Assembly (NCBI RefSeq): GCF_025361915.1
Contig: NZ_JANYJC010000205.1
Location: 1 to 33,729 of the forward strand
Direction: 5' to 3'
From: Chamaesiphon sp. GL140_3_metabinner_50
Lineage (GTDB): Bacteria > Cyanobacteriota > Cyanobacteriia > Cyanobacteriales > Chamaesiphonaceae
Length of the DNA stretch: 33,729 nucleotides
Part shown: one piece after another, positions 16,841 to 33,610 of the stretch
How positions within the stretch are numbered: the first letter of the stretch is position 1
How the letters are laid out: the number at the start of each line of letters is the position of its first letter
Made by a program: the position numbers and the translations under genes
Notes under the pieces: model-generated
Databases searched by the model: none
What the model saw: the letters and a program-made list of their open reading frames with translations, nothing else
What the model was told of the DNA's origin: nothing

Positions 16841-17923
16841 ATGAAAGTTGCTTTGGTACATGACTATTTGACGCAACGGGGGGGTGCAGAACGAGTGTTT
16901 GAGCTGCTGTGCAAGTACTTCCCCCATGCAGACATTTTTACATCCTTGTACGATGCCAAAAACACGATCGATCTCGGAGATCGTCCGGTACAGACCACAA
17001 TTCTTCAGCAGATCCCATATGCGAGTAAGTACTTTAGGCTGCTGGCACCCTTTTACTACCCTGCTTTGCGGGCACTAGACTTGCAGGATTACGACCTGAT
17101 TATTAGCAGTTCGTCGAGCTTTGCTAAAGGTGTGAGGAAAAGACCTGGAGCCAGACATATCTGCTTTTGTCACAACATTCCCCGCTTTTTATGGGATACC
17201 AAAGTGTATCTCAGAGGGTACAAGGAATTTCAAGCATTCGCGCCGCTCCTGGAAAAAGTGTTCGGGTACCTGCGGAAACTCGACCTCCGGTATTCACAAG
17301 AACCCGATCTGTATATTGCCAACTCGACGACGGTGGCAGAACGGATTCGGCAAGTTTATGATAAGCCAGCGATTACCATCAACTATCCGATCGACGATCG
17401 CAAATTTGTGTTTTCGGAGTTCAAAGAAGATTTCTATTTAGTCTCTAGCCGTTTGCTCAGTTACAAGCGGATCGACATTATTGTTGATGCCTTTAACTCA
17501 CTGGGTTGGCCGTTGCTGATCGTGGGCGAAGGCCCCGAACGCCAGCGACTGGAGGCCAAAGCCATGCAGAACATTCGCTTTCTGGGCTACGTCAGCGATG
17601 GCGAACGCGCCCAGCTCATGGCCAAAGCTCAGGCGGTGATTATTGCCGCCTTAGAAGACTATGGGCTGGTGCCCATCGAAGCAAATTTTAGTGGAACGCC
17701 AGCGATTGTCTACGGTGCTGGGGGTGTGTTGGATACTCAGGTACCCGGTTTGACAGGCTTATTTTTTAACCGCCAAACTGCGGCGGCGATTCGGGACGCT
17801 CTGCTCGAAGCTAGTAACATTAAGTGGAACTATGCCAAGATTCGCAACCACGCGTTCGATCGGTTTACCGAAGCTGTATTCTTCCAAAAAGTTGACAGTT
17901 ATACAGGCTGGTGGAAGTCATGA
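16841..17923 (+). CDS. Glycosyltransferase family 4, mannosyltransferase-like, no. 2
   Basis: A 360-residue GT-B enzyme. It begins MKVALVHDYLTQRGGAERVFE and has the N-terminal pattern of WbaZ/WbdA-like mannosyltransferases (ICFCHNIPRFLWD, PDLYIANSTTVAERIRQVY, YPIDDRKF). The donor-binding half has LVSSRLLSYKRIDIIVDAF, LIVGEGPERQRLEA and EDYGLVPIEANFSGTPAIVYGAGG. A GDP-mannose donor is suggested by overall resemblance but is not proven. It ends 13 nt inside the start of the Wzc-like gene, so the two are translationally coupled. Confidence 0.9.
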   Translation: MKVALVHDYLTQRGGAERVFELLCKYFPHADIFTSLYDAKNTIDLGDRPVQTTILQQIPYASKYFRLLAPFYYPALRALDLQDYDLIISSSSSFAKGVRKRPGARHICFCHNIPRFLWDTKVYLRGYKEFQAFAPLLEKVFGYLRKLDLRYSQEPDLYIANSTTVAERIRQVYDKPAITINYPIDDRKFVFSEFKEDFYLVSSRLLSYKRIDIIVDAFNSLGWPLLIVGEGPERQRLEAKAMQNIRFLGYVSDGERAQLMAKAQAVIIAALEDYGLVPIEANFSGTPAIVYGAGGVLDTQVPGLTGLFFNRQTAAAIRDALLEASNIKWNYAKIRNHAFDRFTEAVFFQKVDSYTGWWKS

Positions 17924-20280
17924 AGATGCGGAAATTAGACAAACTAACGCTCGATGCGAACGAGGTAGTGATGGCTCAAAATCTCATTAGATCCGATCGT
18001 GAAGATGCGGATTACGACCAGTTATTTGTCGATAGTAGCGAGGTGCCGCTCGCCGAACGATCGATTACGGCTTTTGGAGTAACAAATGCAGATCCTGGAT
18101 ACGGTCAGCTCTTGGCGGTGCTGTTGCGTCGCAAACTTTGGGTCTTGGCATCTTGGATGGGAGCAGTCGGAGTCGCTTGGTTCATCGGTTCGTATCAAGA
18201 ACCAACCTACCGCAGTTCGATGCAACTCCTCGTCGATCAAAACTATCGCGGCAAATCCGAACCCGGAGGCAGCAATACCCAGTTTGCCGACTCTGATGTC
18301 CAAGCCGACTATGCCACTCAACTCACACTGATGAATAGTTCGATCTTGCTCCAACGGATCGTCGATCGGCTGCGCCCGACTTATCCCCAGATCGGCAGCG
18401 ATGAAATCAAAAAATCGCTATCAGTGACTCAGGTCACAATGGGCAAAACCGCTGACAAAAAAGTGGATACCAAAATTTTTGAAGCGGCTTATGAAGATCG
18501 CGATCCGCTCAAAGCGCAGCAAATTTTGCAAACGGTACAACAAGTTTATCAAGACTATAATCGCGAACAACAAAAGCTGCGCTTGGCTAAGGGGCTAGCA
18601 TTTATTAACGAGCAAGTGCCACAGATCCAGCAGCAACTCCACCAAGCTGAATCCGCGCTCGAAAAATTTCGCAAAAGTCACAACTTTATCAATCCCGAAC
18701 TGCAATCGAAGACTTTAGTTGAGTCTTTGGATAATATCTTGCGGGAGCAGGGGACGAACGTGTTGCAAATTCGGGATTTGAGTAGCCGCTATGCCACCTT
18801 AGAACAAAAAATCGCCCTTTCGCCCCAGGCGAGTTCCGAGGCGACCCGCTTGAGTCAATCCCCCCGCTATCAAAATATCCTGAATGAGGTTCAAAAGACA
18901 GAGCTAGCCTTGAGACAGGAGCGACTGCGATTTACCGATCGCGCGGCTAGCGTTCAGAAATTAAGCGAACAGCGGCAGCAGCTACAGGCGCAACTAGAGA
19001 TCGAGCAGCGGCGGATTTTGCCCAATGGCAGCAAGGGCGGCAATTCCGGGGGTACCGAGCCGCTCCTGAAATCTGGACAATTGGGGACGACGGATCTGAG
19101 CTTAACTAGCCAATTTGTAGACGTGCAGGTCACTTTAACAGCGGCTCGCGCTCGCGCTCAAACCCTGGCTCAGATGGAACGCCGCTACAAGCAACAACTC
19201 CAACAATTTCCAGCATTGCTCTCGGAATATAACCGCTTGCAACCAGCGGTGCAAGTCAATCAGGAGACACTCCAGCAGTTGCTAAAATCTCGGCAGGCGA
19301 TGGGATTAGAGATCGCGCGGGGTGGATTTGATTGGCAGGTCGTCGAAGAGCCGAGGCTAGGACGCAAAACAGGCCCAGATTTGAACCGCATTGTCTTGTT
19401 GGGGGCGGTAATTGGTTTATTCCTCGGTGGAATCGTTGCCTTTGCGCGGGAATGGCTGGATGATTCGATTCATTCCCTAGACGAACTGAAAAAACACACC
19501 AATCTACCTGTGTTGGGGGGTGTGCCAGCCATCTCGTCACCGGGCACTCAGTCGGGAATTGTCCTGCCCTTGCGCCAGCTATCGACTGCAACTATTTCGA
19601 CCATGGAGATAATTCAATCCTTGCCATTTCGCGAGTCGCTCGATCTAGCTTATCAAAACATTCAACTGCTGGAGTCTTCGCGACTTGGCATCGCTCACGG
19701 CTTGCGAACGCGCAAGTCGCTAGCGATTACTTCAGCTTTAGCTGGTGAGGGTAAATCGACGCTAGCGATCGGGTTGGCGTTGAGTGCGGCGCGGTTGCAC
19801 CAGCGGGTCTTGCTGATCGATGCCGATCTACGTCGTCCCAGTTTGCACAAACAATTAGATTTGTTTAATACTGTGGGGCTATCAACGTTACTCAGTGACA
19901 ATACTGAAACCTTAATCGCCAAGGCGATTCAGCCGCTGGCGGCTAATGGCAATCTCGACGTGTTGACAGCAGGGCCAACTCCACTCGATCCGGCTCAACT
20001 GCTCAGTTCGCGGCGGATGGCTGAGTTAATGACCGAGTTTAACGCTCACTACGATCTAGTTTTAATCGATACGGCACCGATCTTGGGCATTGTCGATGCG
20101 GTGATGGTTGCCGCTGTTTGTAGTGGTGTCGTGCTAGTCGAGCGGATCGGCCGATCGCATCGCAAAGATTTAAGTGAGGCGGTGTTTGTGATGCAGCGGT
20201 TTAATGTCGTGGGGCTAATTCTCAACGGGGTGCCACAGTCCGCCACTTACCAGCGGATCGAGGAGGAGCGGGATGCCTAA
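17911..20280 (+). CDS. Wzc-type polysaccharide co-polymerase / tyrosine autokinase
   Basis: A 789-residue inner-membrane protein. There is a cytoplasmic N-terminal stretch, then TM1 (LWVLASWMGAVGVAWFI, about 75-92) and a periplasmic Wzz domain (TYRSSMQLLVD). Long Gln-rich coiled coils follow (about 220-470), then TM2 (IVLLGAVIGLFLGGIVAF, about 495-515) and a BY-kinase domain: Walker A ALAGEGKSTLA (about 608), A' LLIDADLRRPS (about 641), Walker B LVLIDTAPI (about 717). It sets chain length and drives export of surface polysaccharide. The C-terminal tail is short (ATYQRIEEERDA) with a single tyrosine, not the Tyr cluster of E. coli Wzc. Starts possible: GTG 17911, ATG 17920, ATG 17926, all overlapping the preceding GT gene. 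Confidence 0.93.
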   Translation: MEVMKMRKLDKLTLDANEVVMAQNLIRSDREDADYDQLFVDSSEVPLAERSITAFGVTNADPGYGQLLAVLLRRKLWVLASWMGAVGVAWFIGSYQEPTYRSSMQLLVDQNYRGKSEPGGSNTQFADSDVQADYATQLTLMNSSILLQRIVDRLRPTYPQIGSDEIKKSLSVTQVTMGKTADKKVDTKIFEAAYEDRDPLKAQQILQTVQQVYQDYNREQQKLRLAKGLAFINEQVPQIQQQLHQAESALEKFRKSHNFINPELQSKTLVESLDNILREQGTNVLQIRDLSSRYATLEQKIALSPQASSEATRLSQSPRYQNILNEVQKTELALRQERLRFTDRAASVQKLSEQRQQLQAQLEIEQRRILPNGSKGGNSGGTEPLLKSGQLGTTDLSLTSQFVDVQVTLTAARARAQTLAQMERRYKQQLQQFPALLSEYNRLQPAVQVNQETLQQLLKSRQAMGLEIARGGFDWQVVEEPRLGRKTGPDLNRIVLLGAVIGLFLGGIVAFAREWLDDSIHSLDELKKHTNLPVLGGVPAISSPGTQSGIVLPLRQLSTATISTMEIIQSLPFRESLDLAYQNIQLLESSRLGIAHGLRTRKSLAITSALAGEGKSTLAIGLALSAARLHQRVLLIDADLRRPSLHKQLDLFNTVGLSTLLSDNTETLIAKAIQPLAANGNLDVLTAGPTPLDPAQLLSSRRMAELMTEFNAHYDLVLIDTAPILGIVDAVMVAAVCSGVVLVERIGRSHRKDLSEAVFVMQRFNVVGLILNGVPQSATYQRIEEERDA

Positions 20281-20342: not shown

Positions 20343-21287
20343 ATGACACGAACTAAGAAGGTAATCATCACAGGTGGGGCGGGTTTTATCGGTTCGGCGG
20401 CGATCGCCGCACTGCAAAATTGCGGTCACGATCTTTATGCGATCGACAATTTATCATTTGGCAATCGCCAGTTTATCGATCTCCCCGCCGCGCATTTTTT
20501 TGAGGTCGATCTCCTCGATCGAGCCGAGCTGTCTAGAGTAGTCAGCCAAATTAGTCCAGACTGGATCGTTCATCTAGCGGCGATCCATTTTATTCCCTAC
20601 TGTAACCAGCATCCAGTCGCAGCCGCCCAGGTGAACATTCAGGGGACGATGAATGTCCTTGCTGCTGCCAAAAATGTCCGCAATCTGGAAAAAGTATTTT
20701 TTGCTTCCACTGCTGCCGTTTATCCGATCTACGATCGGGCGATCTCCGAAACGCATCCGCCCGCACCTACAGACATCTACGGTTTGTCGAAGCTAGCAGG
20801 AGAACATCTGATGAATGAGTTTCACTTGCAAACCGATATTCCCACGATCGTCTGTCGGTTCTTCAATGCCTTCGGCCCCAACGAGACGAATGCCCATGTA
20901 ATTCCTGAAATTCAGCGGCAGATTAATGCCGGATGCCGCACCATTGGGTTAGGCAATCTCGATCCCAAGCGAGACTTTATCCACACCTCCGATATGGCTG
21001 ATGCGATCGTCAAATTGCTAACCACCTGCGATCGGGGCATCGAAATATTTAATCTCGGTCGGGGGATCGAATATTCCGTAACCGAAGTAGTCACGGCATT
21101 CGAGCAAGTATTAGGTGAAAAAATCATCATTGAAGTCGATCCGGCTAGAGTCCGCAAGGTCGAACGGATGCATTTACTCGCTGATATTACTAAGCTGAAA
21201 AATTTTATCGATTGGGAGCCAAAAATTAGTCTCAAACAAGGAATTAGTACCTTAATCGATCGGCAACTAATTACAGTTATTGGATAG
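20343..21287 (+). CDS. NAD-dependent epimerase/dehydratase (UDP-glucose 4-epimerase-like)
   Basis: A 314-residue short-chain dehydrogenase of the extended type. Features are VIITGGAGFIGSAA (NAD-binding loop), YAIDNLSFGNRQ, HLAAIHFIPYCNQHP, the catalytic Ser/Tyr-Lys in ASTAAVYPIY and YGLSKLAGE, CRFFNAFGPNETNAHVIPEI and KRDFIHTSDMADAI. These fit nucleotide-sugar epimerases such as GalE or GlcNAc-4-epimerase; the substrate cannot be fixed. It provides a sugar donor for the locus. A good SD (ggagg at 20330-20334) precedes the ATG. It is 62 nt after the Wzc-like gene. Confidence 0.92.
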   Translation: MTRTKKVIITGGAGFIGSAAIAALQNCGHDLYAIDNLSFGNRQFIDLPAAHFFEVDLLDRAELSRVVSQISPDWIVHLAAIHFIPYCNQHPVAAAQVNIQGTMNVLAAAKNVRNLEKVFFASTAAVYPIYDRAISETHPPAPTDIYGLSKLAGEHLMNEFHLQTDIPTIVCRFFNAFGPNETNAHVIPEIQRQINAGCRTIGLGNLDPKRDFIHTSDMADAIVKLLTTCDRGIEIFNLGRGIEYSVTEVVTAFEQVLGEKIIIEVDPARVRKVERMHLLADITKLKNFIDWEPKISLKQGISTLIDRQLITVIG

Positions 21288-21415: not shown

Positions 21416-22672
21416 ATGAGCCATCAGCAAAAAATTCTGTTTCACTTGCCAATCTCCAATCCACCAGATGCCTTGAATGGCACTAATGGTCGCGTATTGG
21501 GAATGCTCAAATATTTCCACGATCGTCGCGACAGGTTTGCGGTAGATGCGATCGCTGGTAATAAATTCGGCGTACCAGAATGGAATGACGATCGCCAGCT
21601 CGATGTCTTAAAATTTGTCGATAATATTTTCGTCTATCGGGGCGAAAGCAACTGGTCTGACTTTGTTTATACCCGCGCTCAAAGCTTCTATCATCAACGG
21701 CTATTGCGTCAACAACTCCCCGTCGATTCAGATTATTTTGCACCGCCTGGTTATGTTAGCTATTTAACCAAATTATTAGCGCAACGAAGTTATGATTTTA
21801 TCTGGATTAATAATCTCGACTATGCCCATTTAGCTAGCGACTTGCGATCGCCTAAGCTTCAGACAGTTATCGATATTCATGATATTACTACTCGCTTTCG
21901 GCTGGTCAGAAAGAAGATCGATTTCTCTAAAAACTTGAAGTTTGACTATCAAGCAAATTTTGAGCGAGAGATCGCTTTACTCGATCGATTTGACAACGTA
22001 ATTGTCGATTCTCAATTCGAGCGAAACATCCTCGCCAAAGAACTTTCTCCCGCCAAACTGCACTTTATTCCCTCCCAAGTAAATGGTCTAGATAGTGGCA
22101 GCAACTCGACTCCTTATCTAGCGCGCAGATTTGAGTATGATGTGTTGTTTGTGGGATCTGATAATCAACCCAATCGTGAAGGAATGCAATTCTTTTTAGA
22201 TGAAGTTTTACCATTAATTGTCGAGCAGAAACCCGCGCTTAAAGTCGCGATCGCTGGCAAAATATCGTCCGTAGTTCGAGTCGAACCTGTGCTGGCTAAA
22301 AACTTGATGTGCTTGGGTTACGTTCCCGATCTGTCCGAACTTTATCTAAAATCGAGGTTAGTAATTTGCCCCTTACGAACGGGTGCGGGGACGAAGTTTA
22401 AGCTGGTAGAGGCGATGGCTTATGCGATGCCGATCGTCGCTACAATTCATTCAGCATCAGCTTTAAGTTTAGTCGATCGGGTGAATGCTTTTATTACTGA
22501 CGATCCGGTGGCTTATGCCGATCGAGTTTTGCGGTTGATTCACGAACCAGAGTTAGCCGCTCGATGTTCGGTTCAAATATCTCAAACCTATGCCAGTCAA
22601 CATGAGAGCGCGGCTATTTATACTAAACTCGATGCCATCTTTGAAGCCGATCTGGTTAAAACGGCAGTCTAA
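21416..22672 (+). CDS. Glycosyltransferase family 4, no. 3
   Basis: A 418-residue GT-B glycosyltransferase of the PslH/ExpE7-like style. It starts MSHQQKILFHLPISNPPDALNG, without SD. Visible parts are TVIDIHDITTRFR in the N-terminal domain, VLFVGSDNQPNREGMQFFLDEVLP (linker to the donor domain), MCLGYVPDLSELYLKSRLVICPLRTGAGTKFKLVEAMAYAMPIVAT. The last motif replaces the E-x7-E glutamates by the GTGxKxKxxEAM variant found in many exopolysaccharide transferases. Sugar specificity is unknown. It follows the epimerase gene by 128 nt and precedes the ABC exporter gene by 95 nt. Confidence 0.9.
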   Translation: MSHQQKILFHLPISNPPDALNGTNGRVLGMLKYFHDRRDRFAVDAIAGNKFGVPEWNDDRQLDVLKFVDNIFVYRGESNWSDFVYTRAQSFYHQRLLRQQLPVDSDYFAPPGYVSYLTKLLAQRSYDFIWINNLDYAHLASDLRSPKLQTVIDIHDITTRFRLVRKKIDFSKNLKFDYQANFEREIALLDRFDNVIVDSQFERNILAKELSPAKLHFIPSQVNGLDSGSNSTPYLARRFEYDVLFVGSDNQPNREGMQFFLDEVLPLIVEQKPALKVAIAGKISSVVRVEPVLAKNLMCLGYVPDLSELYLKSRLVICPLRTGAGTKFKLVEAMAYAMPIVATIHSASALSLVDRVNAFITDDPVAYADRVLRLIHEPELAARCSVQISQTYASQHESAAIYTKLDAIFEADLVKTAV

Positions 22673-22767: not shown

Positions 22768-24615
22768 ATGTTTAAACTTCCCGCCTCTGTTCGAGTTTTA
22801 TTAAAAGCCACCACTTTTTGGCAGACTAACCATCCGATCTTGCGAGAGTTCAAATATTTTCCCAAGATTGCGCTCTTAGCCATCGTATTCTCTCTACTTG
22901 CAGCCGCTTTTGAGGGAATTGGATTAGGTTTTCTCCTCTCCTTTTTACAAAATCTGACAAGTCCCAATGCAGCACCACTCAAAACAGGTATTAATTGGTT
23001 CGATCTGTGGTTTTTAGGTGTCAATACATCTGCTACCAGTCGGCTGTACCGGATCTCTGCGGCGATCTGGCTGAGTACTTGTACGCGGGCAATATTTAAT
23101 TATTTAGCTCAACTTTATACAGAGTTTTCCCAGCTTCTTTTAACAGATCGGCTCCGCAAGCGAATTTTTGAACAGCTTCAGGCGGTAAGCTTGAGCTACT
23201 TTTCAACTTCAAATTCAGGAGATTTAATTAATACGATTACTTCAGAGATAGAACGCTTTAAACAAGTATTCAATGGCAGTTCTTTTTTATTCACTAGGAG
23301 TCTGGCAATTCTAGTTTACTTGGTGTCGATGTTGTTAATTTCTTGGCAACTAACGATCGTGGCATTCCTACTGTTTAGTTTGATGGCTGTGGGTTTGTCT
23401 ACCGCGAGCAAGCGGGTACGCGAAGGTAGTTTTGAGGTTTCGACAGCAAATGGTGATTTTACTACTGTCGCGATCGAACTTATTAGTGGAATGCGGACGG
23501 TGTGGGCGTTTGCGACCCACGACTACGAACGAAGACGTTTTTATCAAGCCAGCGAACGGGTTGTCCGCTCGTCGGCAAAAATGGTGGGGCTGTGGGCAAT
23601 GGTCAAGCCCCTAGCTGAAGGCATTGCCACAACGATCCTGATTGTGATGATTCTGGTGGCTTTTAATGGCTTTTTAACTAACGGAGCATTGCCAGTTGCT
23701 TCATTACTAACTTTTCTATTCATCCTGATTAGATTAGTCCCATTTATTCAGGATGTAAATTCCATTGTCGCGGTACTCAATAGTCTGCATGGCTCTAAAG
23801 CGAAGATTGAAGAAGTATTGAGAACTGATAATAAGACATATTTTCACAATGGCACGATCGAATTTACAGGCTTAAAACGATCGATTGAATTAATTGATGT
23901 TGATTTTAGCTACGATGACGATCGCTTAATTCTGCAAAATATTACGCTGTCGATCGAGCGCGATCGGGTAACTGCTCTAGTTGGTGCTTCTGGTGCTGGC
24001 AAAACAACTTTAGCCGATCTGATTGCCCGCTTTTACGATCCGACGGCTGGTTCGATCGCGATCGATGGAGTCGAGCTGCGGCAGTTAGAAATCGATTCAT
24101 TTCGGCGCAAGTTAGCGGTAGTCAGTCAAGATACGTTTATCTTTAATACTTCTGTCCGCAACAATATTGCCTATGGCACAGCAACAGCAACCGATATCGA
24201 AATTTATCGGGCTGCGGAGCTTGCTAACGCGCTGGAATTTATCCAGGAGATGCCCCAAGGGTTTGAGACGATGCTCGGCGAACGTGGTGTCAGGCTATCT
24301 GGCGGACAAAGGCAACGCATCGCGATCGCCCGCGCCCTGTTGCGCGATCCGGAAATCTTAATCCTCGATGAAGCGACTAGTGCCTTGGATTCTGTTTCCG
24401 AAAAAATCATTCAGGAATCGATCGAACGGCTGGCGAGGGGGCGGACGACGATCGCCATCGCCCATCGTCTTTCTACCATCTCCAAGGCGGATAAAGTCGT
24501 GGTACTCGATCGCGGGCGAATTGTCGAGCAGGGCACCTACCAAGAGCTACTCCAACAGCAACAGTATCTCTGGAAATATCACCAGATGCAATATGTTCAA
24601 CAACATGCAGTTTAA
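22768..24615 (+). CDS. ABC exporter (MsbA/PglK/HepA-like half-transporter)
   Basis: A 615-residue fused membrane and ATPase half-transporter. Residues 1-330 hold six hydrophobic helices (e.g. IALLAIVFSLLAAAFEGIGLGFLL, LAILVYLVSMLLISW). The ATPase has Walker A GASGAGKTTLAD (about 408), Q-loop VVSQDTFIF, signature LSGGQRQRIAIARAL (about 510), Walker B ILILDEATSALD (about 530) and the switch His in IAIAHRLSTI. All catalytic residues are intact. Homodimers of this type flip lipid-linked saccharides (PglK) or lipid A (MsbA). In heterocyst formers the related HepA is needed for envelope polysaccharide. Its position among glycosyltransferase genes favours export of a lipid-linked oligosaccharide. 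HepA orthology is a guess needing a tree. The ORFs 24167-24829 in other frames are shadows. Confidence 0.93.
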   Translation: MFKLPASVRVLLKATTFWQTNHPILREFKYFPKIALLAIVFSLLAAAFEGIGLGFLLSFLQNLTSPNAAPLKTGINWFDLWFLGVNTSATSRLYRISAAIWLSTCTRAIFNYLAQLYTEFSQLLLTDRLRKRIFEQLQAVSLSYFSTSNSGDLINTITSEIERFKQVFNGSSFLFTRSLAILVYLVSMLLISWQLTIVAFLLFSLMAVGLSTASKRVREGSFEVSTANGDFTTVAIELISGMRTVWAFATHDYERRRFYQASERVVRSSAKMVGLWAMVKPLAEGIATTILIVMILVAFNGFLTNGALPVASLLTFLFILIRLVPFIQDVNSIVAVLNSLHGSKAKIEEVLRTDNKTYFHNGTIEFTGLKRSIELIDVDFSYDDDRLILQNITLSIERDRVTALVGASGAGKTTLADLIARFYDPTAGSIAIDGVELRQLEIDSFRRKLAVVSQDTFIFNTSVRNNIAYGTATATDIEIYRAAELANALEFIQEMPQGFETMLGERGVRLSGGQRQRIAIARALLRDPEILILDEATSALDSVSEKIIQESIERLARGRTTIAIAHRLSTISKADKVVVLDRGRIVEQGTYQELLQQQQYLWKYHQMQYVQQHAV

Positions 24616-24851: not shown

Positions 24852-26444
24852 ATGAAAATCCATCACTCGAAATCATCTCAATCAAAATTTTCTAGTCAAG
24901 CTTATCTCCTCGCGATCGTAGCCGTACTTGGCATTCTATTCCGGTTTGGCAACTTGGATCTGAAAGTGTATTGGCAAGATGAAGCTTTGACATCATTGCA
25001 AGTAGCTGGCTATAGCCAAGCAGAATTTATTAAGACAGCTTTTAATTCGGAAATTACCACCCCGTTAGCTTTGCAGCGTTACCAGGAAGTCAATAGCGAG
25101 CGTGGTGTCCTCGATACTATCAAAGTTTTAACCGAAACACCAGAACACCCACCGCTGTATTTCATCTTGCTGAGGATTTGGGCAAATTTTTTCGGCAGTT
25201 CTATTGTTGCATATCGAAGTTTTTCGTCACTAATAAGTTTGCTAGTGCTGCCCTGTATTTACTATCTCTGTGTAGAATTATTCGATTCGCCCAGAGTTGG
25301 CTATTTTGGGGTGGCTATAACCTCGCTCTCGCCCTTCTTTATTGAATATGGCCAAGAAGCCAGACAATATAGTCTCTGGATGGTGGCAATTCTGATTACT
25401 AGCCAAACTCTGTTAAGAGCGATGCGGCTGAATACTTGGCAAAGTTGGGGTATTTATGCAGTTGCCTTAACATTTAGTTGTTATACTCATTTCTTTTCGA
25501 TCTTTGTGCTAGCTGCTCAGGGATTTTATGTGTTGGCGATCGGCAAATTCCGCCTCAATCGCACGTTCGGTGCTTTTATGGCTGCTGCGATGGCTGGTCT
25601 CCTGGCATTTACGCCGTGGATCGTGACATTTCTGACCCACTTAACAGAATTCAATCGATCGATGTCGTGGTCTTATCGACTGTATTCCTCACCAATAAAC
25701 CTAGTCAGAACTTGGCTGACTCTACCCAGATTACTATTTTTCAATCTAGATTTACCTCGGACTGAATTATTTAACAACTATTTTTTTAGTAACTATTATT
25801 TAGTCGCGATCGTTACAAGTCTTTTTGCTGGCTATGCCATCTATTTTGTCATCCGTAATACTAAACCAAAAGTGTGGTTGTTGCCCCTGACACTGATCGT
25901 TATTCCCTTCCTAATTTTAGCAATACCAGATTTAATCGGCAACGGAACTCGATCGATCAACTCTCGATATTTAACCCCAGCTTATTTAGGAATCGAAATA
26001 TGTGTTGCTTACCTACTTGCTACTCGAACGATGCTGGCTGTTAATCGCAAAATTTGGCAAATAGGTTTTGCAACTTTACTAGCGATCTCAACACTAGCTA
26101 GTGTCATCAATTTGACAATAAACTATTCGTTCGCCAAAGATAAAGCGATTGTTGTAGTAGCTAACTCGATCGATCCCAGTCCCCAATCGCTAGTAATCGC
26201 TAATCCTTATGATTACAATCCGATGAAAGTCTTAGCATTGAGTAGACGGCTACATTCAGGTGTCAAAATTCAACTTTTACCTGAGGCAGAAACACCGACA
26301 ATTCCCAATGGATTTAAAAACTATTACTTTTACTCTCCTCAAATTGCCGATACCTGGGAGCAGTTTTTAACTAATAGTGCATTCGAGTCTGTGAAAATAT
26401 CGAAAGATAACAATGAAAAATTATGGATTTATCGAAAAAAATGA
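24852..26444 (+). CDS. GT39/ArnT-like multi-spanning glycosyltransferase
   Basis: A 530-residue integral membrane protein of the GT-C fold (PMT_2 / ArnT-like, family 39 or 83 style). After a first TM (AYLLAIVAVLGILFRFG) comes the conserved YWQDEALTSL, with the catalytic acidic pair DE facing the periplasm, and later TPEHPPLYFILLRIW, the HPPLYF motif of the family. About ten more TM helices follow (e.g. FFIEYGQEARQYSLWMVA, YAVALTFSCYTHFFSIFVLA), then a soluble C-terminal tail (residues 430-530). Such enzymes use polyprenyl-phosphate-linked sugars outside the membrane. A polyprenyl-phospho-sugar donor fits the UbiA-type gene at the end of the locus. An SD (agagg) precedes the ATG. Confidence 0.88.
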   Translation: MKIHHSKSSQSKFSSQAYLLAIVAVLGILFRFGNLDLKVYWQDEALTSLQVAGYSQAEFIKTAFNSEITTPLALQRYQEVNSERGVLDTIKVLTETPEHPPLYFILLRIWANFFGSSIVAYRSFSSLISLLVLPCIYYLCVELFDSPRVGYFGVAITSLSPFFIEYGQEARQYSLWMVAILITSQTLLRAMRLNTWQSWGIYAVALTFSCYTHFFSIFVLAAQGFYVLAIGKFRLNRTFGAFMAAAMAGLLAFTPWIVTFLTHLTEFNRSMSWSYRLYSSPINLVRTWLTLPRLLFFNLDLPRTELFNNYFFSNYYLVAIVTSLFAGYAIYFVIRNTKPKVWLLPLTLIVIPFLILAIPDLIGNGTRSINSRYLTPAYLGIEICVAYLLATRTMLAVNRKIWQIGFATLLAISTLASVINLTINYSFAKDKAIVVVANSIDPSPQSLVIANPYDYNPMKVLALSRRLHSGVKIQLLPEAETPTIPNGFKNYYFYSPQIADTWEQFLTNSAFESVKISKDNNEKLWIYRKK

Positions 26445-26538: not shown

Positions 26539-27678
26539 ATGAAAATTTGTATAGTGACCCACTGTGTCATTAGAGGTGACGGTCAAGGGCGGGTAAATTA
26601 TGAGGTGGTGCGTGAAGCCCTGCGACAGGGGCACCACCTGACACTAGTTGCCAGTGCCATTAGTCCCGAACTGGCACAGCATCCCCAGGTTACTTGGGTA
26701 CCGATTGTTGTCAAACAAATATCGACAGCACTACTCCGCAATGTCGTCTTTTCGCTCAAGAGTTCGGCTTGGTTGCGGCAACATCAGGCGGAATTTGATG
26801 TGGTAAAAGTCAATGGCGCGATCGCGTCCGGTCGATCGGATCTCAACGCGGTGCATTTCGTTCATAGTTCCTGGTTGAAGTCACCCTTTCATGTTTGGCA
26901 CCAACGGCGGGATCTCTATGGTGCTTACCAGTGGCTCTATACAGCCTTAAATGCGTACTGGGAAAAGGCCGCTTTCGATCGAGCCAAACTGGTGGTAGCG
27001 GTGTCCGAAAAGGTGAAGCGAGAGATCTTGGCACTCGGCATCCCAGCGGAGCGGATTGAGGTCATCACCAATGGTGTCGATCTTGAGGAGTTTAGCCCCG
27101 CGCGAGTAGATCGCCGCGAGTTGGGACTGCCAGAGGATGTGCTGCTGGCTCTATTTGTCGGCGATCTTCGCGTTCCCCGCAAAAATCTGGATACGGTACT
27201 CCACGCCTTAGTAAACGTGCCACAGTTGCATCTGGCGATCGCGGGTGCGGCTGACGGTCGCAACTTCTACCCGCAACTAGCGCAAAAGTTAGGAGTTAGC
27301 GACAGAGTGCATTTCCTCGGCTTTCGATCGGATGTTGCCGATCTGATGCGGAGTGCGGATCTGTTCGTGTTTCCCTCCCGATATGAAGCGTGTTCGCTGG
27401 TGCTATTAGAGGCGATGGCTTCTCAATTACCCCTAATTACCGCGACATCTGCTGGCGGGGCAGAAATTATGACTCCTGAGTGTGGTTTCGTGCTGGATGA
27501 CCCCGACGAGGTGGACACACTCAGCTCGGCAATGAATCATCTGGTTAAACCCGAAGCTCGGCACCAGATGGGCAAAGCTGCTCGATCGATCGCCGAGCGA
27601 TCTAGCTGGACGCAGATGGCACGCCGCTATCTAGAAATGTTTGAGGAGGTTAGGGAGGGGATAGGGGATAGGGGATAG
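26539..27678 (+). CDS. Glycosyltransferase family 4, no. 4
   Basis: A 379-residue GT-B glycosyltransferase. N-terminal part: MKICIVTHCVIRGDGQGRVNYEVV, then VHFVHSSWLKSPFH. Donor part: LFVGDLRVPRKNLDTVLHAL, VHFLGFRSDVADLMRSADLFVFPSRYEACSLVLLEAMASQLPLITA (E-x7-E). An SD-like aggaag lies 7-12 nt before the ATG. The last residues (EEVREGIGDRG) are encoded by STRR DNA (ggaggttagggaggggataggggatagg), and the TAG stop is part of the repeat; the natural end was probably near YLEMFEE. The sugar is unknown. Confidence 0.92.
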   Translation: MKICIVTHCVIRGDGQGRVNYEVVREALRQGHHLTLVASAISPELAQHPQVTWVPIVVKQISTALLRNVVFSLKSSAWLRQHQAEFDVVKVNGAIASGRSDLNAVHFVHSSWLKSPFHVWHQRRDLYGAYQWLYTALNAYWEKAAFDRAKLVVAVSEKVKREILALGIPAERIEVITNGVDLEEFSPARVDRRELGLPEDVLLALFVGDLRVPRKNLDTVLHALVNVPQLHLAIAGAADGRNFYPQLAQKLGVSDRVHFLGFRSDVADLMRSADLFVFPSRYEACSLVLLEAMASQLPLITATSAGGAEIMTPECGFVLDDPDEVDTLSSAMNHLVKPEARHQMGKAARSIAERSSWTQMARRYLEMFEEVREGIGDRG

Positions 27679-27918: not shown

Positions 27919-28890
27919 ATGTTAAACATTACCGTCGTGGTGCCTACTTATCGACGACCGATCGATCTAGCACGTTGTCTAACCGCGCTGCAACAGCAAT
28001 CCCGCCCCGCCCATGAGGTCATCGTCATCGTGCGGGATACTGATTTCGCCACTTGGGATTTTCTGCGCGGCTGCCAGCCAGCAGTACCCCTACAGACAGC
28101 AACCGTTAAAGTTCCTGGTGTAATTGCAGCGATGAATCTCGGCCTAGAGCAAGCGCACGGGGAGATTATTGCCTTTACCGATGATGATGCTGCGCCCCAC
28201 CCAGATTGGTTGGAGAGGATCGAGCGGCACTATTTGGCTAACGATCGCGTGGGGGGTGTGGGCGGTAGAGATTGGGTGCGCGAAGGCGGCAAGTTGCTCG
28301 ACGATGCTAGATCGATCGTCGGTAAAGTGCAGTGGTTTGGCAGGACGATCGGCAATCATCATCTGGGGGTGGGCGCAGCCAGAGAGGTGGATATTTTAAA
28401 GGGGGTGAATATGAGCTGGCGGCGAATGGCGATCGCGCACTTACGATTTGACGATCGGCTGCAAGGATCTGGTGCCCAGGCACATTTTGAAATTGCCTTT
28501 AGTCTGGCGGTGCGGCGGGCGGGATGGTCGATTATCTACGATCCGCTGGTGGCAGTCGATCACTATCCAGCCGAGCGACCGCCCACAGACCCCCGTCTGC
28601 ATCAACACCCGCGCGATCGATTTAACGCAACGGCGATGACCCAAACCGTGCATAACGAGACGCTGGGACTGCTAGAGCATTTACCCTGGCCGAATCGGAT
28701 GATGTTTCTGCTGTGGGCGGTGGCGATCGGGACGCAGATCGCACCAGGATTGCTTCAGTATCTGCGGTTTTTGCCCCAGGAAGGTGCCCTCGCTACCGCT
28801 AAGTGGCGGGCTAGTTTGCAAGGACGGTGGCAGGGATGGCAAACCTGGCACCAAACCAGATTTACCGAGCTTACCAAGGATAGCCCATGA
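27919..28890 (+). CDS. Glycosyltransferase family 2 (GT-A)
   Basis: A 323-residue GT-A inverting glycosyltransferase. It has ITVVVPTYRRPIDLARCLTAL at the N-terminus, AAMNLGLEQAHGEIIAFTDDDAAPHPDWL with the DDD metal/nucleotide motif at about residues 90-92, GGVGGRDWV and GVNMSWRRMAI. A hydrophobic stretch (MMFLLWAVAIGTQIAPGLL, about 257-275) could be a C-terminal membrane helix. The start is secured by the best SD in the window, aggagg, 8 nt before the ATG. Its TGA overlaps the ATG of the next gene (ATGA), so the two are coupled. The ORF 28784-29314 across the junction is a shadow. Confidence 0.92.
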   Translation: MLNITVVVPTYRRPIDLARCLTALQQQSRPAHEVIVIVRDTDFATWDFLRGCQPAVPLQTATVKVPGVIAAMNLGLEQAHGEIIAFTDDDAAPHPDWLERIERHYLANDRVGGVGGRDWVREGGKLLDDARSIVGKVQWFGRTIGNHHLGVGAAREVDILKGVNMSWRRMAIAHLRFDDRLQGSGAQAHFEIAFSLAVRRAGWSIIYDPLVAVDHYPAERPPTDPRLHQHPRDRFNATAMTQTVHNETLGLLEHLPWPNRMMFLLWAVAIGTQIAPGLLQYLRFLPQEGALATAKWRASLQGRWQGWQTWHQTRFTELTKDSP

Positions 28891-30257
28891 ACAAAAATGC
28901 ACTCCAAACTGCCTTGCAACCTGCAACTGCCTGGATGGCGATCCTGGCACTAATCGCGTTTACAGGTCTGCTGGCGATCGCGGGAGCGGGAAAAGTGCTC
29001 AACTTGGCTTTTCCCGCAGGTGCTTTGGCGGTGAGTCTGCTGCTCTACTGGCGCGCGCCGCTGCTGTATGTGGGTTTTACCTGGTGGATCTGTTTGCTGA
29101 CCCCGCTGGTACGCAGGCTGGCAGATTATCGCAGCGGCTTTACCGATCCCAGCCCGATCTTACTGACCCCCTATTTGGTGATTCTCGTGACGCTGGTAAC
29201 TCTCAAACAGCATTTACCCAAAGCCTACAGTCAGGGTGGTTTACCCTTTTTAATGGCTTTCGCGGGGATTTTCTATGCCATCCTCACTGGGCTAATTATC
29301 AACCCACCAGTTAAAGTGCTGGTTGCCGCCTTAGAATGGCTAGCTCCCGTGCTATTTGGCTTTCATCTGTTTACCAACTGGCAAAGCTACCCCGCCTACC
29401 GTCAGAACCTCCAGCGGACACTGACTTGGGGCGTAGTGGTGATGGGTAGTTATGGCATCGTGCAGTATTTAATCGCACCACAATGGGATCGGACTTGGTT
29501 GATTAATACCACTGTGAATACGATGGGCAAACCCGAACCGCTGGGGCTACGGGTCTGGAGTACATTAAATTCACCAGAACCCTTCGCCGCGATTATGGGG
29601 GGTTGCTTGCTATTGCTATTTACCAACCGATCGCCGCTACGACTGCCAGCAGCGATCGTGGGGTATCTATCTTTTTTGTTGTGTGCGGTGCGATCGGGGT
29701 GGCTGGGTTGGCTGGCGGGATTGTTCAGTCTGGTTATCTCGTTGAAACCAAAATTACAACTGCGCTTATCGATCGCGCTCTTGGTGCTAGCCGTTTTCCT
29801 CGTACCTCTAGCGACGGTCGAACCCTTCTCTCAACTCAGCAGCCGCCTGGATACCTTTACCAATTTAGAAAACGACCAAAGTGCGATCGAACGACAGCAA
29901 AGCTTCAATGCCTTGCAAGATTCTGCCCTGACTAGTTTTGTCGGGCAGGGCATTAGCGGCCAGAAGCTAGATAGTGCCATATTTTCAATGCTGTTTGAAT
30001 TGGGCTGGATCGGGACGATTGGCTATGCTGGGGGCTTATTTTTGCTTACTTTCACATTGTGCCAAGCCCAGCCAGCTAGATTCGATCCGTTTATTGGCAC
30101 TGCACGGGCGATCGCGATTAGTGCCTTAGTCAGACTGCCCGTAAATGTCCCGATGCTAGGAGCCAGTGGTTTATTACTGTGGACTTTTTTGGGGATCGGT
30201 TTGGCAGGAATTAAATTCGATCGATGGAAAGCTCGGCCAGCGCAGCGGTTTCGATAG
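28887..30257 (+). CDS. O-antigen polymerase/ligase-like membrane protein (Wzy_C)
   Basis: A 456-residue protein with about ten to twelve hydrophobic helices (e.g. AWMAILALIAFTGLLAIAG, LSIALLVLAVFLVPLATV). A soluble loop of about 100 residues follows SGWLGWLAGLFSL, then ERQQSFNALQDSALTSFVGQGISG. The RSGWLGWLAGL segment corresponds to the conserved SRxxWLxL part of the Wzy_C (O-antigen ligase) domain. Members either polymerise repeat units (Wzy) or transfer glycans to an acceptor (WaaL); in a cyanobacterial exopolysaccharide locus with Wzc, polymerase is likelier. It overlaps the GT2 gene by 4 nt. Just after the stop lies MITE copy D. Confidence 0.85.
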   Translation: MNKNALQTALQPATAWMAILALIAFTGLLAIAGAGKVLNLAFPAGALAVSLLLYWRAPLLYVGFTWWICLLTPLVRRLADYRSGFTDPSPILLTPYLVILVTLVTLKQHLPKAYSQGGLPFLMAFAGIFYAILTGLIINPPVKVLVAALEWLAPVLFGFHLFTNWQSYPAYRQNLQRTLTWGVVVMGSYGIVQYLIAPQWDRTWLINTTVNTMGKPEPLGLRVWSTLNSPEPFAAIMGGCLLLLFTNRSPLRLPAAIVGYLSFLLCAVRSGWLGWLAGLFSLVISLKPKLQLRLSIALLVLAVFLVPLATVEPFSQLSSRLDTFTNLENDQSAIERQQSFNALQDSALTSFVGQGISGQKLDSAIFSMLFELGWIGTIGYAGGLFLLTFTLCQAQPARFDPFIGTARAIAISALVRLPVNVPMLGASGLLLWTFLGIGLAGIKFDRWKARPAQRFR

Positions 30258-30274: not shown

Positions 30275-30487
30275 CTACGGTGTCTACACAAGTTAGATCT
30301 GCTTCGTTTCGAGATCTAGATCCCCCCTAACCCCCCTTCAAAAGGGGGGAACCGGATCCGGAAGTCCCCCTTTTGAAGGGGGATTTAGCGGCGTTTTTAT
30401 TCGGGGGTTCCCCCCGAATAAAAAAACGACAAGACAGGGGGATCTCTAGGGTTTTCGCTTTTCTCTGGACTTGTGTATATACCGTAG
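30275..30487. mobile_element. MITE-like element with terminal inverted repeats, copy D
   Basis: The left end ctacggtgtctacacaagt (30275-30293) and right end acttgtgtatataccgtag (30469-30487) are 19-nt inverted repeats with two mismatches. Inside are a left arm (agatctgcttcgtttcgagatct) homologous to copy A, and the GC-rich palindromic core shared with copy B (30320-30384, inverted). A strong hairpin at 30393-30427 follows. It is 213 bp long with no ORF and fills most of the 304-nt gap between the Wzy-like and glycosidase genes. Confidence 0.78.
30393..30427. terminator. Strong bidirectional terminator-like hairpin inside MITE D
   Basis: gtttttattcggggg and cccccgaataaaaaac pair around a short ttc loop. 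It has a G-C core and T/A runs on both sides, so it can end transcription in either direction. It probably separates the upstream GT2-Wzy unit from the glycosidase-UbiA unit. Confidence 0.65.
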
Positions 30488-30561: not shown

Positions 30562-32646
30562 ATGTTCGATCTCAAAGGTTATCTGAAAAATATTGTTCGT
30601 GCGATCGATGTCGTCAAAATCGATCGGGCTGTACTTACCGTGTTAACCATGCTGTTTGTAGCTAGCTCGATCGCGCTCCTCATCGTGAATCACCCACGAC
30701 GAGCGAACTCAGATTTCGCCAATCGGATCGCCACTGCCGCCACCCCCAGCACTAACTCAGTGGTTGCTCCATATACAGCTCGCTCCCACTTTGACAATGT
30801 GCCCTTTGGCTCTCACTCTCACTGGCTCCAACCTTGGCGGGCTTATTTAGAAACAGTTCCAGCCGCAAAGTTGCTCCAGGGGGTGGGCATCCAGCTCGAT
30901 CTCCACGATCGCGAAAATCCCGATCTGGTGCTGCAAATGCTGGCAACCCACGGCATCCAGACAGCTCGGCTGGAGATCGGCTGGAATAACCTCAGTTACG
31001 ATCGTCAAACCCTCCAAAACGATCGGCTCCAGGCAATCCTCACAGCCTGTAAACGCTGGAAAGTGCGCCCCCTCATTTTACTCAACGCCAATCAAGGTAT
31101 CCCCACCCCCACCCAGTTTTTTGAGCGGACGATCGCCGTCACTGCGCCAGCAGGTTCGCGCCAAATTCAACTCAATGACACTAGCGGTTTGACGATCGGC
31201 AACAGTGGCTTCAATAACTTAACTGATGATGGTTGGGCTGCCGAAGCCCTAATTACAGCGATTGACGGCAAGACTGTCAGCCTCTCTAAGCCCTTGCCAA
31301 AGGCGATCGCGGCTGGCTCGTCCGTCAAGATGGCAACTTTGAGGTACCGACCCTTTGCCAAGCCTGGAAGTGCCGATTACCGCCAAACGATCGCGGGTTG
31401 GCAGCACTATGTCGGTACGGTGGCGAATTTTGGAGCCAAGGCTTTGGGAACCACCCAAAGTAACGATAAAGGCTTTGACATGGAGATCTGGAACGAGTTG
31501 ACTTTTGGCAGCAAATTTCTGTCGATTAATAATTACTATCGCCCCGTGCTGGCTGCTTTTGACGAAGACAGCATTTGGCAGAATTTAGTCACCGCTACCG
31601 CCGATTATGCGGTCGCTCATCCCCAGCAATTTGCGGGAGTCAAGTTTAGCGATGGCTTTGCCAATACTATTCCCTGGCCAGCCGCATCCACACAACCAGT
31701 CAGGATTAGCGCGATTAGCAAGCATCCTTATGCCAACCGTAAAAACTTTCCACAGGACGAACAGCATGGCCAGAAGCTCGATGCCTTCGGTAAACCCACT
31801 AATTTTATTCCCACCTATTCAGCCCTCTTCCCAGAATATTATGCCACCGCCCTGCAAACGGAAACCCTCCTGCGCGATGCGGCTCCATTTACCAATGATA
31901 TTCAAGGCGTTCGGCACGGACGGTATGCTCGGCAAGTTAAGGGGCGGGTTGTCCCCACCGATGTCTGGATTACCGAGACAGGGATTGCCCCCCAAGAACA
32001 TGGCATCGCAGATCGATCGCAAGCGTTGGCACTCAAAGCCAAAACTACCGCTCGCTACTATACCTTTTACCCGAATAAAGGTGTTACCAAGCTCTATCTG
32101 TATTCTGCCGCGTCTGGAGATCTCGGTCTGGGCATCATGCAAGATAACTTTTTGGAGTATGCCAGCAGCCATAGCGTCTACCCCAAAGACGATCGACCCT
32201 ATGTTTCTCCTGCCCTCCAAATTACCAGCCAGATTGTCAGGCAGATGAAACAGAACTTAGACCCCGCTTTGACTCAGGCACGCCAACTGCAACTCGACTC
32301 TATTCGCGACCCTCACAACCAGATTCAGTTTGGTGGTGATGGCACTGCCGCACATCCCCAACTTTACAATCGCGACGTGTTTGCCTTCTTGCCCTATCAA
32401 GTCAACAGTCACCGCTTTGTCGTCCCCTATTACGTTATGACCCGCGATGTTACCAAAAACCTACCACCCGCAAAGTTCGCAATTCAAATATCCAAACTCA
32501 AAGCACAGGGGGCTACTGTCAGTGTTTACGATCCGTTGCACGATCGCACCCTACCCGTCTCGATCGATCGTCGCGGTCGAGACTTCCTCAGTTTAACTTT
32601 ATCAGCAACAGATTATCCATACTTACTAATTATTCAGGAACGGTAA
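30562..32646 (+). CDS. Membrane-anchored clan GH-A glycosidase-like protein
   Basis: A 694-residue protein with one N-terminal membrane helix (VLTVLTMLFVASSIALLIVN, about 24-43), the rest probably outside the plasma membrane. The body looks like a TIM-barrel glycoside hydrolase of clan GH-A: early strands LLQGVGIQLDL and IQTARLEIGWNNL, an acid/base candidate Glu312 in FDMEIWNELTFG (Asn-Glu after a Trp), and a nucleophile candidate Glu472 in DVWITETGI. KHPYANR between them also fits. A beta-rich insert of about 90 residues (PAGSRQIQLNDTSGL…) breaks the barrel. GH39 and related families share this layout, and PslG of Pseudomonas is a membrane-linked GH39 enzyme in an exopolysaccharide operon, so trimming of the nascent polymer is inferred. 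The UbiA-type gene follows after 1 nt. Confidence 0.72.
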   Translation: MFDLKGYLKNIVRAIDVVKIDRAVLTVLTMLFVASSIALLIVNHPRRANSDFANRIATAATPSTNSVVAPYTARSHFDNVPFGSHSHWLQPWRAYLETVPAAKLLQGVGIQLDLHDRENPDLVLQMLATHGIQTARLEIGWNNLSYDRQTLQNDRLQAILTACKRWKVRPLILLNANQGIPTPTQFFERTIAVTAPAGSRQIQLNDTSGLTIGNSGFNNLTDDGWAAEALITAIDGKTVSLSKPLPKAIAAGSSVKMATLRYRPFAKPGSADYRQTIAGWQHYVGTVANFGAKALGTTQSNDKGFDMEIWNELTFGSKFLSINNYYRPVLAAFDEDSIWQNLVTATADYAVAHPQQFAGVKFSDGFANTIPWPAASTQPVRISAISKHPYANRKNFPQDEQHGQKLDAFGKPTNFIPTYSALFPEYYATALQTETLLRDAAPFTNDIQGVRHGRYARQVKGRVVPTDVWITETGIAPQEHGIADRSQALALKAKTTARYYTFYPNKGVTKLYLYSAASGDLGLGIMQDNFLEYASSHSVYPKDDRPYVSPALQITSQIVRQMKQNLDPALTQARQLQLDSIRDPHNQIQFGGDGTAAHPQLYNRDVFAFLPYQVNSHRFVVPYYVMTRDVTKNLPPAKFAIQISKLKAQGATVSVYDPLHDRTLPVSIDRRGRDFLSLTLSATDYPYLLIIQER

Positions 32647-32647
32647 A

Positions 32648-33610
32648 ATGTCTATCAATCGAGCGACTCCATTAAAAAAAGTCAAGTCTAAAATCTCAGC
32701 ATATGTTCGTGAATTACGAGTCAGACAATGGACTAAGAACTTAATTGTATTTGCAGCCCCTTTGTTTGCCTTCAATCTTAGTGCCCTATCTCTATCTGGT
32801 AGCCTGATTGCCTTTATGTTATTTTGCTGTGCTTCGAGTAGTTTCTATTTGATTAATGACATTATCGATGTCGAAGCCGATCGACTACATCCAGTTAAAT
32901 GTAAGCGACCGATCGCCGCAGGAGAGATCGGTGTTTCCGAAGCGATTATCGTCTCGATCTTGCTCTTGAGCGTTGCGGCGATCGTCGGCTACCGGACATC
33001 ATTCGGTTTGGGAACGGCAATTGTCGGATATGCCTTATTGCAAGTGGCATATAACTTAAAACTCAAGCATAAAATTTTTGTCGATGTCCTGGCGATCGCC
33101 GCCGGATTTGTCTTGAGAGCATGTGGTGGAGCTGCTGCTACAGGCATTGAGTTATCGCAATGGTTTATCTTATGTACGGCGATGCTGGCACTATTTTTAG
33201 GAATCGAAAAACGTAAGGCAGAATTACGACTTTCGGAAATAAAAGGTCGAAAATCGCGGGCGGTATTACATCGATATTCGCTACCATTATTAAACCGCAT
33301 GGAGAGCATCGTTACCAATGGCACGATTGTTTTTTATACCCTGTGGAGTGCTGGCCCTGCCTTTAAGGGAGCTGTAACTTCGTGGATGATGTTGACAGTC
33401 CCGTTTGTCTTGTATGGTATTTTTCGCTATCAATTATTGAGCGATCCACAAGAAATAGCCCGGTCGAATCCTCAATTAGAACAGGGTGGTAAAACGGAGC
33501 GGCCGGAAGAGATATTGCTAGGAGACAAGCTGCTTTTGTTGACAGCAGTTGGCTGGATAATTACAGTATTTGCACTTAAACTATGTTACCAACTTCAGTG
33601 GATTCATTAA
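32648..33610 (+). CDS. UbiA-family prenyltransferase, decaprenyl-phosphate phosphoribosyltransferase-like
   Basis: A 320-residue membrane protein with about eight TM helices. RVRQWTKNLIVFAAPLFA at the N-terminus and YLINDIIDVEADRLHPVKCKRPIAAGEI (split by NDxxDxxxD) form the first Asp-rich motif with HPxKxxRP. Later come YNLKLKHKIFVDVLAIAAGFVLRA and GIEKRKAEL. This pattern is that of the DPPR-synthase branch (Rv3806c in mycobacteria), which transfers phosphoribose from PRPP to polyprenyl phosphate, the first step to polyprenyl-phospho-arabinose or -ribose. Here it would supply a lipid-linked pentose, perhaps for the GT39-like enzyme. An SD (aggaa) lies within the last codons of the upstream gene; the 1-nt gap shows translational coupling. 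The TAA is followed by STRR words. Confidence 0.88.
   Translation: MSINRATPLKKVKSKISAYVRELRVRQWTKNLIVFAAPLFAFNLSALSLSGSLIAFMLFCCASSSFYLINDIIDVEADRLHPVKCKRPIAAGEIGVSEAIIVSILLLSVAAIVGYRTSFGLGTAIVGYALLQVAYNLKLKHKIFVDVLAIAAGFVLRACGGAAATGIELSQWFILCTAMLALFLGIEKRKAELRLSEIKGRKSRAVLHRYSLPLLNRMESIVTNGTIVFYTLWSAGPAFKGAVTSWMMLTVPFVLYGIFRYQLLSDPQEIARSNPQLEQGGKTERPEEILLGDKLLLLTAVGWIITVFALKLCYQLQWIH

What the first reader, a model, noticed from the sequence alone, without database searches (positions are those of the whole stretch)
30562..32646. Membrane-tethered GH-A-type glycosidase built into an exopolysaccharide locus
The 694-residue protein has one N-terminal TM helix, two well-placed catalytic glutamate candidates (E312 in IWNEL, E472 in WITETG) and an unusual beta-rich insert of about 90 residues between early barrel strands. 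PslG of Pseudomonas shows that such enzymes can process nascent exopolysaccharide at the membrane. I know of no described cyanobacterial counterpart with this insert, coupled to a UbiA-type lipid-sugar gene.
Basis: partly seen in the sequence, partly recalled or inferred. Interest (0 to 1): 0.65.

Follow-up and report, generated by a model that had tools for sequence, protein, structure and literature searches.

The report
Membrane-anchored PslG-like polysaccharide-cutting enzyme, uncharacterised family
A cyanobacterium carries, right next to the genes that build and export a sugar polymer, a membrane-anchored enzyme of an uncharacterised glycoside-hydrolase family whose predicted shape is closest to PslG, the enzyme that trims the biofilm polymer of Pseudomonas, and many other cyanobacteria keep a different PslG-like enzyme at the same kind of locus.

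Summary
The 694-aa ORF at 30562-32646 has one N-terminal hydrophobic anchor. AlphaFold2 gives a (beta/alpha)8 barrel (pLDDT 94.9) with E312 just after strand 4 and E472 at the end of strand 7. Both are invariant in 35 relatives, as are N311, H388, Y390 and W469.

No Pfam-A or NCBIfam family matches: this is a rare, unannotated GH-A family (38 loci, at least seven phyla), nearest to GH39.

The 87-residue insert is not special to this protein. It is the family's hallmark, a small beta-module resembling phage tail-tube/tailspike domains.

The gene follows a Wzy-like polymerase in a HepA-type export locus, and the same Wzy family lies nearby in eight other loci (cyanobacteria and Acetobacterales). 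The Wzy family occurs in 138/380 cyanobacterial genomes. A second GH39-like family lies within 10 kb of it in 29 of 46 genomes with both (chance about 0.3). A polymerase-linked GH-A hydrolase is thus recurrent, with two alternative families.

The UbiA neighbour (decaprenyl-phosphate phosphoribosyltransferase type) is co-directional but not a general partner.

Best reading: PslG-like trimming or release of the nascent polymer. Substrate and activity are untested.

The parts
30562..32646 (+). GH-A family glycosidase gene (694 aa), 'family X'
30637..30687 (+). N-terminal hydrophobic segment (residues 26-42), probable inner-membrane signal anchor
   Evidence: hydropathy 2.48; orientation inferred
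31096..31356 (+). Beta-rich insert (residues 179-265) between barrel strand 3 and helix 3
31495..31497 (+). E312, predicted acid/base, end of strand 4 (N311-E312 motif)
31723..31725 (+). H388, invariant, just after strand 6 (HPY motif)
31975..31977 (+). E472, predicted nucleophile, end of strand 7; the same region is aligned with the nucleophile region of GH39 5jvk
32290..32643 (+). C-terminal beta-rich domain (residues 577-694)
   Evidence: strands in model
32648..33610 (+). UbiA-family gene, decaprenyl-phosphate phosphoribosyltransferase type; starts right after the GH stop codon
   Evidence: NF008978 247.7 bits against cut-off 207
28887..30257 (+). Wzy / O-antigen-ligase-like polymerase (456 aa, many TM)
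   Evidence: PF04932 weak here (15.2 bits, below cut-off) but over cut-off in orthologue L022 (32.8); conserved family A4
27919..28890 (+). GT2 glycosyltransferase
26539..27678 (+). GT4 glycosyltransferase
24852..26444 (+). PMT_2-type membrane glycosyltransferase
22768..24615 (+). HepA-family polysaccharide ABC exporter
   Evidence: NF045513 975 bits against cut-off 725
21416..22672 (+). GT4 glycosyltransferase
20343..21287 (+). NAD-dependent sugar epimerase/dehydratase
17911..20280 (+). Wzc-type polysaccharide co-polymerase/tyrosine kinase
   Evidence: TIGR01007 over cut-off

Best explanation
The protein is a retaining endo-beta-glycosidase of clan GH-A, most like GH39 PslG. It is held on the outer face of the inner membrane by its N-terminal helix and acts on the polymer made by this locus. 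The proposed sequence is: glycosyltransferases build a lipid-linked repeat unit; HepA/Wzc/Wzy export and polymerise it; the anchored enzyme cuts the nascent chain with E312 as acid/base and E472 as nucleophile. The cut would set chain length, release polymer from the polymerase or membrane, or clear stalled polymer, as proposed for PslG and Psl. The insert lies in the strand 3-helix 3 loop, which in a TIM barrel is on the catalytic face, and probably helps grip the chain. Shown: the fold prediction, the conservation, the locus and its recurrence. Inferred: activity, retaining mechanism, linkage and role.
For: Fold: model pLDDT 94.9; PDB hits 1-4 are PslG (5bx9 E 9e-12, TM-target 0.57; 9g17; 4zn2) and GH39 5jvk. 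The 35-member profile's top PDB sequence hit is 5jvk (E 0.0054), aligned over the nucleophile region. Invariant N311, E312, H388, Y390, W469 and E472. Context: next gene downstream of Wzy; the same Wzy family lies near the GH in 8 other loci, overlapping it by 4 bases in Rhodopila L031. This Wzy is single-copy in the window's genome. The Wzy-nearby label is clustered on the tree but needs 4 changes (0 of 500 shuffles as low). A second GH39-like family lies within 10 kb of this Wzy in 29 of 46 genomes that have both, about 0.3 expected. The PslG precedent: it sits at the inner membrane and its catalytic Glu are needed for full Psl production (PMC6813494, PMC9075953).
Against: No activity is known for any member. 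TM-scores to PslG are moderate (0.40 by query, 0.57-0.60 by target), with about 12% identity. The nearest relative (L010, Leptolyngbyaceae RU_5_1, 65-66%) and both Gloeobacterales copies lie outside EPS loci, and L011 sits beside sugar-uptake-like permeases, so not every member serves EPS synthesis. The Wzy assignment of the window protein is below Pfam's cut-off. A 305-bp gap with a palindromic repeat separates Wzy from the GH.
Confidence: 0.62

Rival explanations
1. Matrix remodelling: the enzyme degrades the cell's own finished extracellular polysaccharide, for dispersal or cell separation, and plays no part in synthesis.
For: Extracytoplasmic N-termini throughout the family; PslG is also described as a degrader of Psl outside the cell or in the periplasm (abstract of PMC6813494).
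Against: An uncleaved-looking N-terminal anchor in the window protein and immediate linkage to Wzy favour action on nascent chains.
Confidence: 0.18
2. Catabolic hydrolase: the enzyme attacks polysaccharides from other organisms and sits in the EPS locus by accident.
For: Some relatives lie outside EPS loci; L011 is a 2048-aa protein beside two permease-like genes, and L010 carries a Calx-beta domain.
Against: The same GH-Wzy pairing recurs in cyanobacteria and Acetobacterales, and a second GH39-like family does the same.
Confidence: 0.1
3. Transglycosylase: the enzyme moves nascent chains to another acceptor (envelope glycan or lipid) instead of hydrolysing them.
For: Retaining GH-A enzymes can transglycosylate (general knowledge); the co-directional UbiA-type gene implies a further lipid-linked sugar.
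Against: Nothing in sequence or model distinguishes this from hydrolysis.
Confidence: 0.08

Closest known systems
PslG of Pseudomonas aeruginosa (GH39; 5bx9, 4zn2, 9g17)
   Same: Best Foldseek match; catalytic Glu pair; encoded in an exopolysaccharide operon; inner-membrane association.
   Different: About 12% identity and no sequence-level match for the window protein; lacks the 87-residue insert (inferred from chain length of about 413 and moderate TM); PslG's operon and polymer differ.
GH39 enzyme of Bacteroides cellulosilyticus WH2 (5jvk)
   Same: Second fold hit and best sequence-profile hit (E 0.0054), nucleophile region aligned.
   Different: 11% identity; gut symbiont enzyme, not from an EPS synthesis locus as far as known (general knowledge).
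Cyanobacterial GH39-like 'family Y' (alignment A5, about 440 aa; described here)
   Same: Profile-profile match to family X (probability 90.9, E 1e-6); linked to the same Wzy family; profile hits 5jvk (4.6e-9) and PslG (0.003).
   Different: No matching insert seen in the A5 alignment; two of three N-termini inspected carry a lipobox; far commoner (56 of 370 genomes, against 4 of 390 with full-length X).
Heterocyst envelope polysaccharide (HEP) island of Anabaena PCC 7120 (alr2825-alr2841)
   Same: HepA equivalog over cut-off. Locus L096 has HepA, three further ORFs that look like GT2s, GT4, GT2, Wzy, matching the published order alr2835-alr2841.
   Different: The passages read list no glycosidase in the HEP island; homology to PCC 7120 genes themselves was not tested; unknown whether the window organism forms heterocysts.
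Phage tailspike/endosialidase/tail-tube beta-modules
   Same: Insert model matches phage Mystique tail tube (E 2.9e-5, TM 0.68), LKA1 tailspike and endosialidases (E 0.001-0.03).
   Different: Here it is inserted in a TIM-barrel loop; no confirmed sequence homology.

Membership tests
Clan GH-A glycoside hydrolases | (beta/alpha)8 barrel | tested here: met
   AF2 model, pLDDT 94.9; eight strands in order; GH39, GH35 and GH30 among top fold hits
Clan GH-A glycoside hydrolases | Asn-Glu at end of strand 4 (acid/base) and Glu at end of strand 7 (nucleophile) | tested here: met
   N311-E312 and E472 placed so in the model and invariant in 35 sequences
Clan GH-A glycoside hydrolases | Carboxylates about 5 A apart, retaining mechanism | not testable with these tools
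   Model coordinates not available; needs structure or stereochemical assay
GH39 | Sequence match to the curated family model PF01229 | tested here: not met
   No Pfam GH39 hit for the protein or any relative; PF01229 finds nothing in the genome. Whether PF01229 finds PslG itself was not tested
GH39 | Closest fold to GH39 structures | tested here: met
   First four PDB hits are GH39
GH39 | Significant sequence homology to a GH39 member | tested here: inconclusive
   5jvk E 0.0054 by profile; linked through family Y
PslG-like EPS-processing hydrolases (by function) | Encoded in an EPS biosynthesis locus | tested here: met
PslG-like EPS-processing hydrolases (by function) | Membrane association | tested here: inconclusive
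   Hydrophobic segment, no lipobox; cleavage cannot be excluded
PslG-like EPS-processing hydrolases (by function) | Cleaves the polymer made by its locus | not testable with these tools
   Needs enzyme assay
HEP island | HepA-family exporter | tested here: met
   NF045513 975 bits
HEP island | Heterocyst-specific expression and role | not tested
   Organism's differentiation not known

The most novel reading that the evidence does not exclude
Cyanobacterial HepA/Wzy polysaccharide loci commonly include a dedicated GH39-like, membrane-held hydrolase that works with the polymerase, and that slot is filled by at least two diverged families (Y commonly, the insert-bearing X rarely). If so, cutting the nascent chain is a standard step of this export pathway, with the hydrolase swapped to match the polymer.
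Probability: 0.4. Interest if true: 0.7.

Novelty: new variant of a known kind. Interest (0 to 1): 0.55.

Why it matters
Why polysaccharide-building loci carry an enzyme that cuts the product is an open question (stated for PslG in PMC9075953). Here two GH39-like families, neither matched by Pfam, recur at one polymerase family across cyanobacteria, and one of them also in Acetobacterales. That gives comparative material and defined catalytic residues to test whether hydrolysis is part of synthesis. The X family is a candidate new CAZy family with a built-in beta-module and may yield enzymes against tough cyanobacterial sheaths.

Tried and rejected
Direct Pfam, NCBIfam and PDB sequence searches with the single protein gave nothing. 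The idea that the gene is part of the standard HEP island was dropped: the passages of the published alr2825-alr2841 table that were read show no glycosidase and alr2840 is a GT. The insert as a peculiarity of this protein was rejected: all 35 sequences have it. UbiA as functional partner was weakened: absent from other family-X loci except a weakly similar one in Verrucomicrobium; other cyanobacteria keep it beside DprE1/DprE2 types, but no convincing DprE1 was found in this genome (genome 91% complete, contig ends 119 bp after UbiA). A viral-structure search gave only distant hits. The HEP paper of 2005 is not held.

Full report
Observation. The ORF at 30562-32646 (+) encodes 694 residues. 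A hydrophobic segment covers residues 26-42 (mean hydropathy 2.48) with no lipobox. The basic residues before it suggest the N-terminus is inside and the enzyme outside, though signal cleavage cannot be excluded. Single-sequence searches of Pfam-A, NCBIfam and PDB gave no match.

Family. A profile from five homologues found 38 loci in one scan of 84,980 genomes. They come from Cyanobacteriota, Armatimonadota, Verrucomicrobiota, Planctomycetota, Bacillota (Cohnella and other Paenibacillaceae), Actinomycetota (mostly Solirubrobacterales) and Pseudomonadota (Acetobacterales), with a few unnamed bacteria. Within the class the gene is rare: 4 of 390 genomes with full-length hits. It is absent from eight congeners of the window's genome, some of them incomplete assemblies. 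In a 35-sequence alignment N311, E312, H388, Y390, W469 and E472 are invariant. We call it family X.

Fold. AlphaFold2 on residues 70-694 with this alignment gave pLDDT 94.9 and pTM 0.93. Barrel strands in domain numbering are 39-42, 65-71, 100-106, 237-240, 293-295, 313-318, 398-404 and 439-446. E312 (243) follows strand 4 and E472 (403) ends strand 7, as in clan GH-A. A beta-rich domain closes the C-terminus. Foldseek against PDB ranks PslG 5bx9 first (E 9e-12, TM-target 0.57), then GH39 5jvk, PslG 9g17 and PslG 4zn2, followed by GH35 enzymes and, further down, GH30. The profile's best PDB sequence hit is 5jvk (E 0.0054), with the nucleophile region aligned. Family X is therefore GH-A with near certainty and nearest to GH39, but formal GH39 membership is unproven: it has no PF01229 match.

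Insert. Residues 179-265 sit between strand 3 and helix 3, in a loop that lies on the catalytic face of a TIM barrel (general knowledge). All 35 sequences carry it at about 85-92 residues. Modelled alone (pLDDT 87.4), it best matches the tail-tube protein of phage Mystique (E 2.9e-5, TM 0.68), then, weakly, tailspikes and endosialidases. Sequence profiles do not confirm the link (weak E 0.03). A role in gripping the chain is inference.

Locus. Upstream genes are a Wzc-type kinase, an epimerase, GT4s, a HepA-family exporter (NF045513, 975 bits against cut-off 725), a PMT-like transferase, GT4, GT2 and a Wzy-like protein. The GH stop ends at 32646 and the ATG of UbiA, a decaprenyl-phosphate phosphoribosyltransferase type (NF008978, 247.7 bits against cut-off 207), is at 32648. 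Wzy and GH are about 305 bp apart, with a palindromic repeat between them.

Recurrence. Clustering neighbours across all loci shows the same Wzy family near family X in the window and eight other loci: six cyanobacterial (five of them Pleurocapsales-type) and two Acetobacterales. In Rhodopila (L031) Wzy and GH overlap by four bases; in Paracraurococcus (L028) the order is GT2, GT4, GH, Wzy. This Wzy is single-copy in the window's genome. On an ML tree of 34 members the Wzy-nearby label needs four changes against a shuffled mean of 8.1 (0 of 500 as low), so the pairing is clustered yet not confined to one lineage. Some members are elsewhere: L010, L025, L026 and others show no EPS genes within reach, and L011 is a 2048-aa protein beside permease-like genes.

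A second hydrolase at the same place. The Wzy family occurs in 138 of 380 cyanobacterial genomes. Inspecting ten such loci revealed another family of about 440 aa (Y), with NEWD and ATExGYH motifs, close to Wzy. Its profile hits GH39 5jvk at E 4.6e-9 and PslG at E 0.003, and aligns to family X with probability 90.9 (E 1e-6), nucleophile on nucleophile. Y occurs in 56 of 370 genomes. Of 46 genomes with strong Y and Wzy, 29 have them within 10 kb and 20 within 5 kb; about 0.3 are expected by chance (positions transcribed by hand, assuming 6-Mb genomes). Related genomes are not independent, so the count overstates the number of separate events. The two genomes of this sample with X beside Wzy (G000, G029) have no Y, whereas G342 has X elsewhere and Y at Wzy: this fits alternative use of one slot.

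HEP relation. L096 carries HepA, three further ORFs that look like GT2s, GT4, GT2, Wzy in the order published for alr2835-alr2841. The window locus thus resembles a HEP-type locus with a hydrolase added. That alr2841 is this Wzy is inferred from order and annotation only.

UbiA. Other cyanobacteria keep this UbiA near DprE1/DprE2-type genes in at least one case, with a further DprE1-like ORF in a second, pointing to a polyprenyl-phosphate pentose donor. This genome shows no convincing DprE1, but the contig ends 119 bp beyond UbiA.

Mechanism. The best-supported account is PslG-like: a membrane-held retaining endo-glycosidase cuts the nascent chain. In Pseudomonas, inner-membrane PslG and its two catalytic Glu are required for full Psl yield (PMC6813494, PMC9075953), and PslG is a retaining endo-beta-glucanase (PMC11912335). 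For the window protein the activity, linkage and phenotype are untested.

Verdict. The finding is real and its main idea is supported. The insert is a family trait, the UbiA link is local, and the broader result is a recurring hydrolase-polymerase association in cyanobacterial polysaccharide loci.

Noticed in passing
L095 5994-7304 and 1497-2972; L098 3319-4638; 56 of 370 genomes: A second unannotated GH39-like family (Y, about 440 aa, NEWD...ATExGYH), frequently beside the same Wzy; two of three N-termini inspected have a lipobox.
   Followed up: partly
window 30320-30440: Strong palindromic C/G-rich repeats between Wzy and the GH gene, perhaps a MITE-like element.
   Followed up: no
L039, L041, L046, L047: In Cohnella the GH homologue sits beside Asn synthase, HprK-like kinase, NTP_transf_5 and ABC genes (plus a lasso B2 protein in L041), which look like a lasso-peptide cluster, flanked by Wzz/Wzc genes and a pectate-lyase-like gene.
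   Followed up: partly
L046, L047: The family-X gene is interrupted by a frame break in two Cohnella genomes.
   Followed up: no
L040: A contig titled Bifidobacterium breve holds a family-X gene that groups with Solirubrobacteraceae with full support; probably a mislabelled or contaminated MAG.
   Followed up: no
L010 9443-11875: The nearest relative of the window protein has an N-terminal Calx-beta domain and no EPS context.
   Followed up: partly
window 32648-33610; L060, L064: Cyanobacterial decaprenyl-phosphate phosphoribosyltransferase-type UbiA; in other genomes near DprE1/DprE2-type genes, suggesting a polyprenyl-phospho-arabinose pathway.
   Followed up: partly
window 7076-7999 and 15498-16475: Two similar methyltransferase-like genes lie about 7.5 kb apart; a UreC-like urease alpha-subunit ORF (11087-12796, by eye) lies between them.
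   Followed up: no
L090 9163-11910: A 916-aa protein with a weak H-type lectin match near another Wzy; possibly a further glycan-active enzyme.
   Followed up: no
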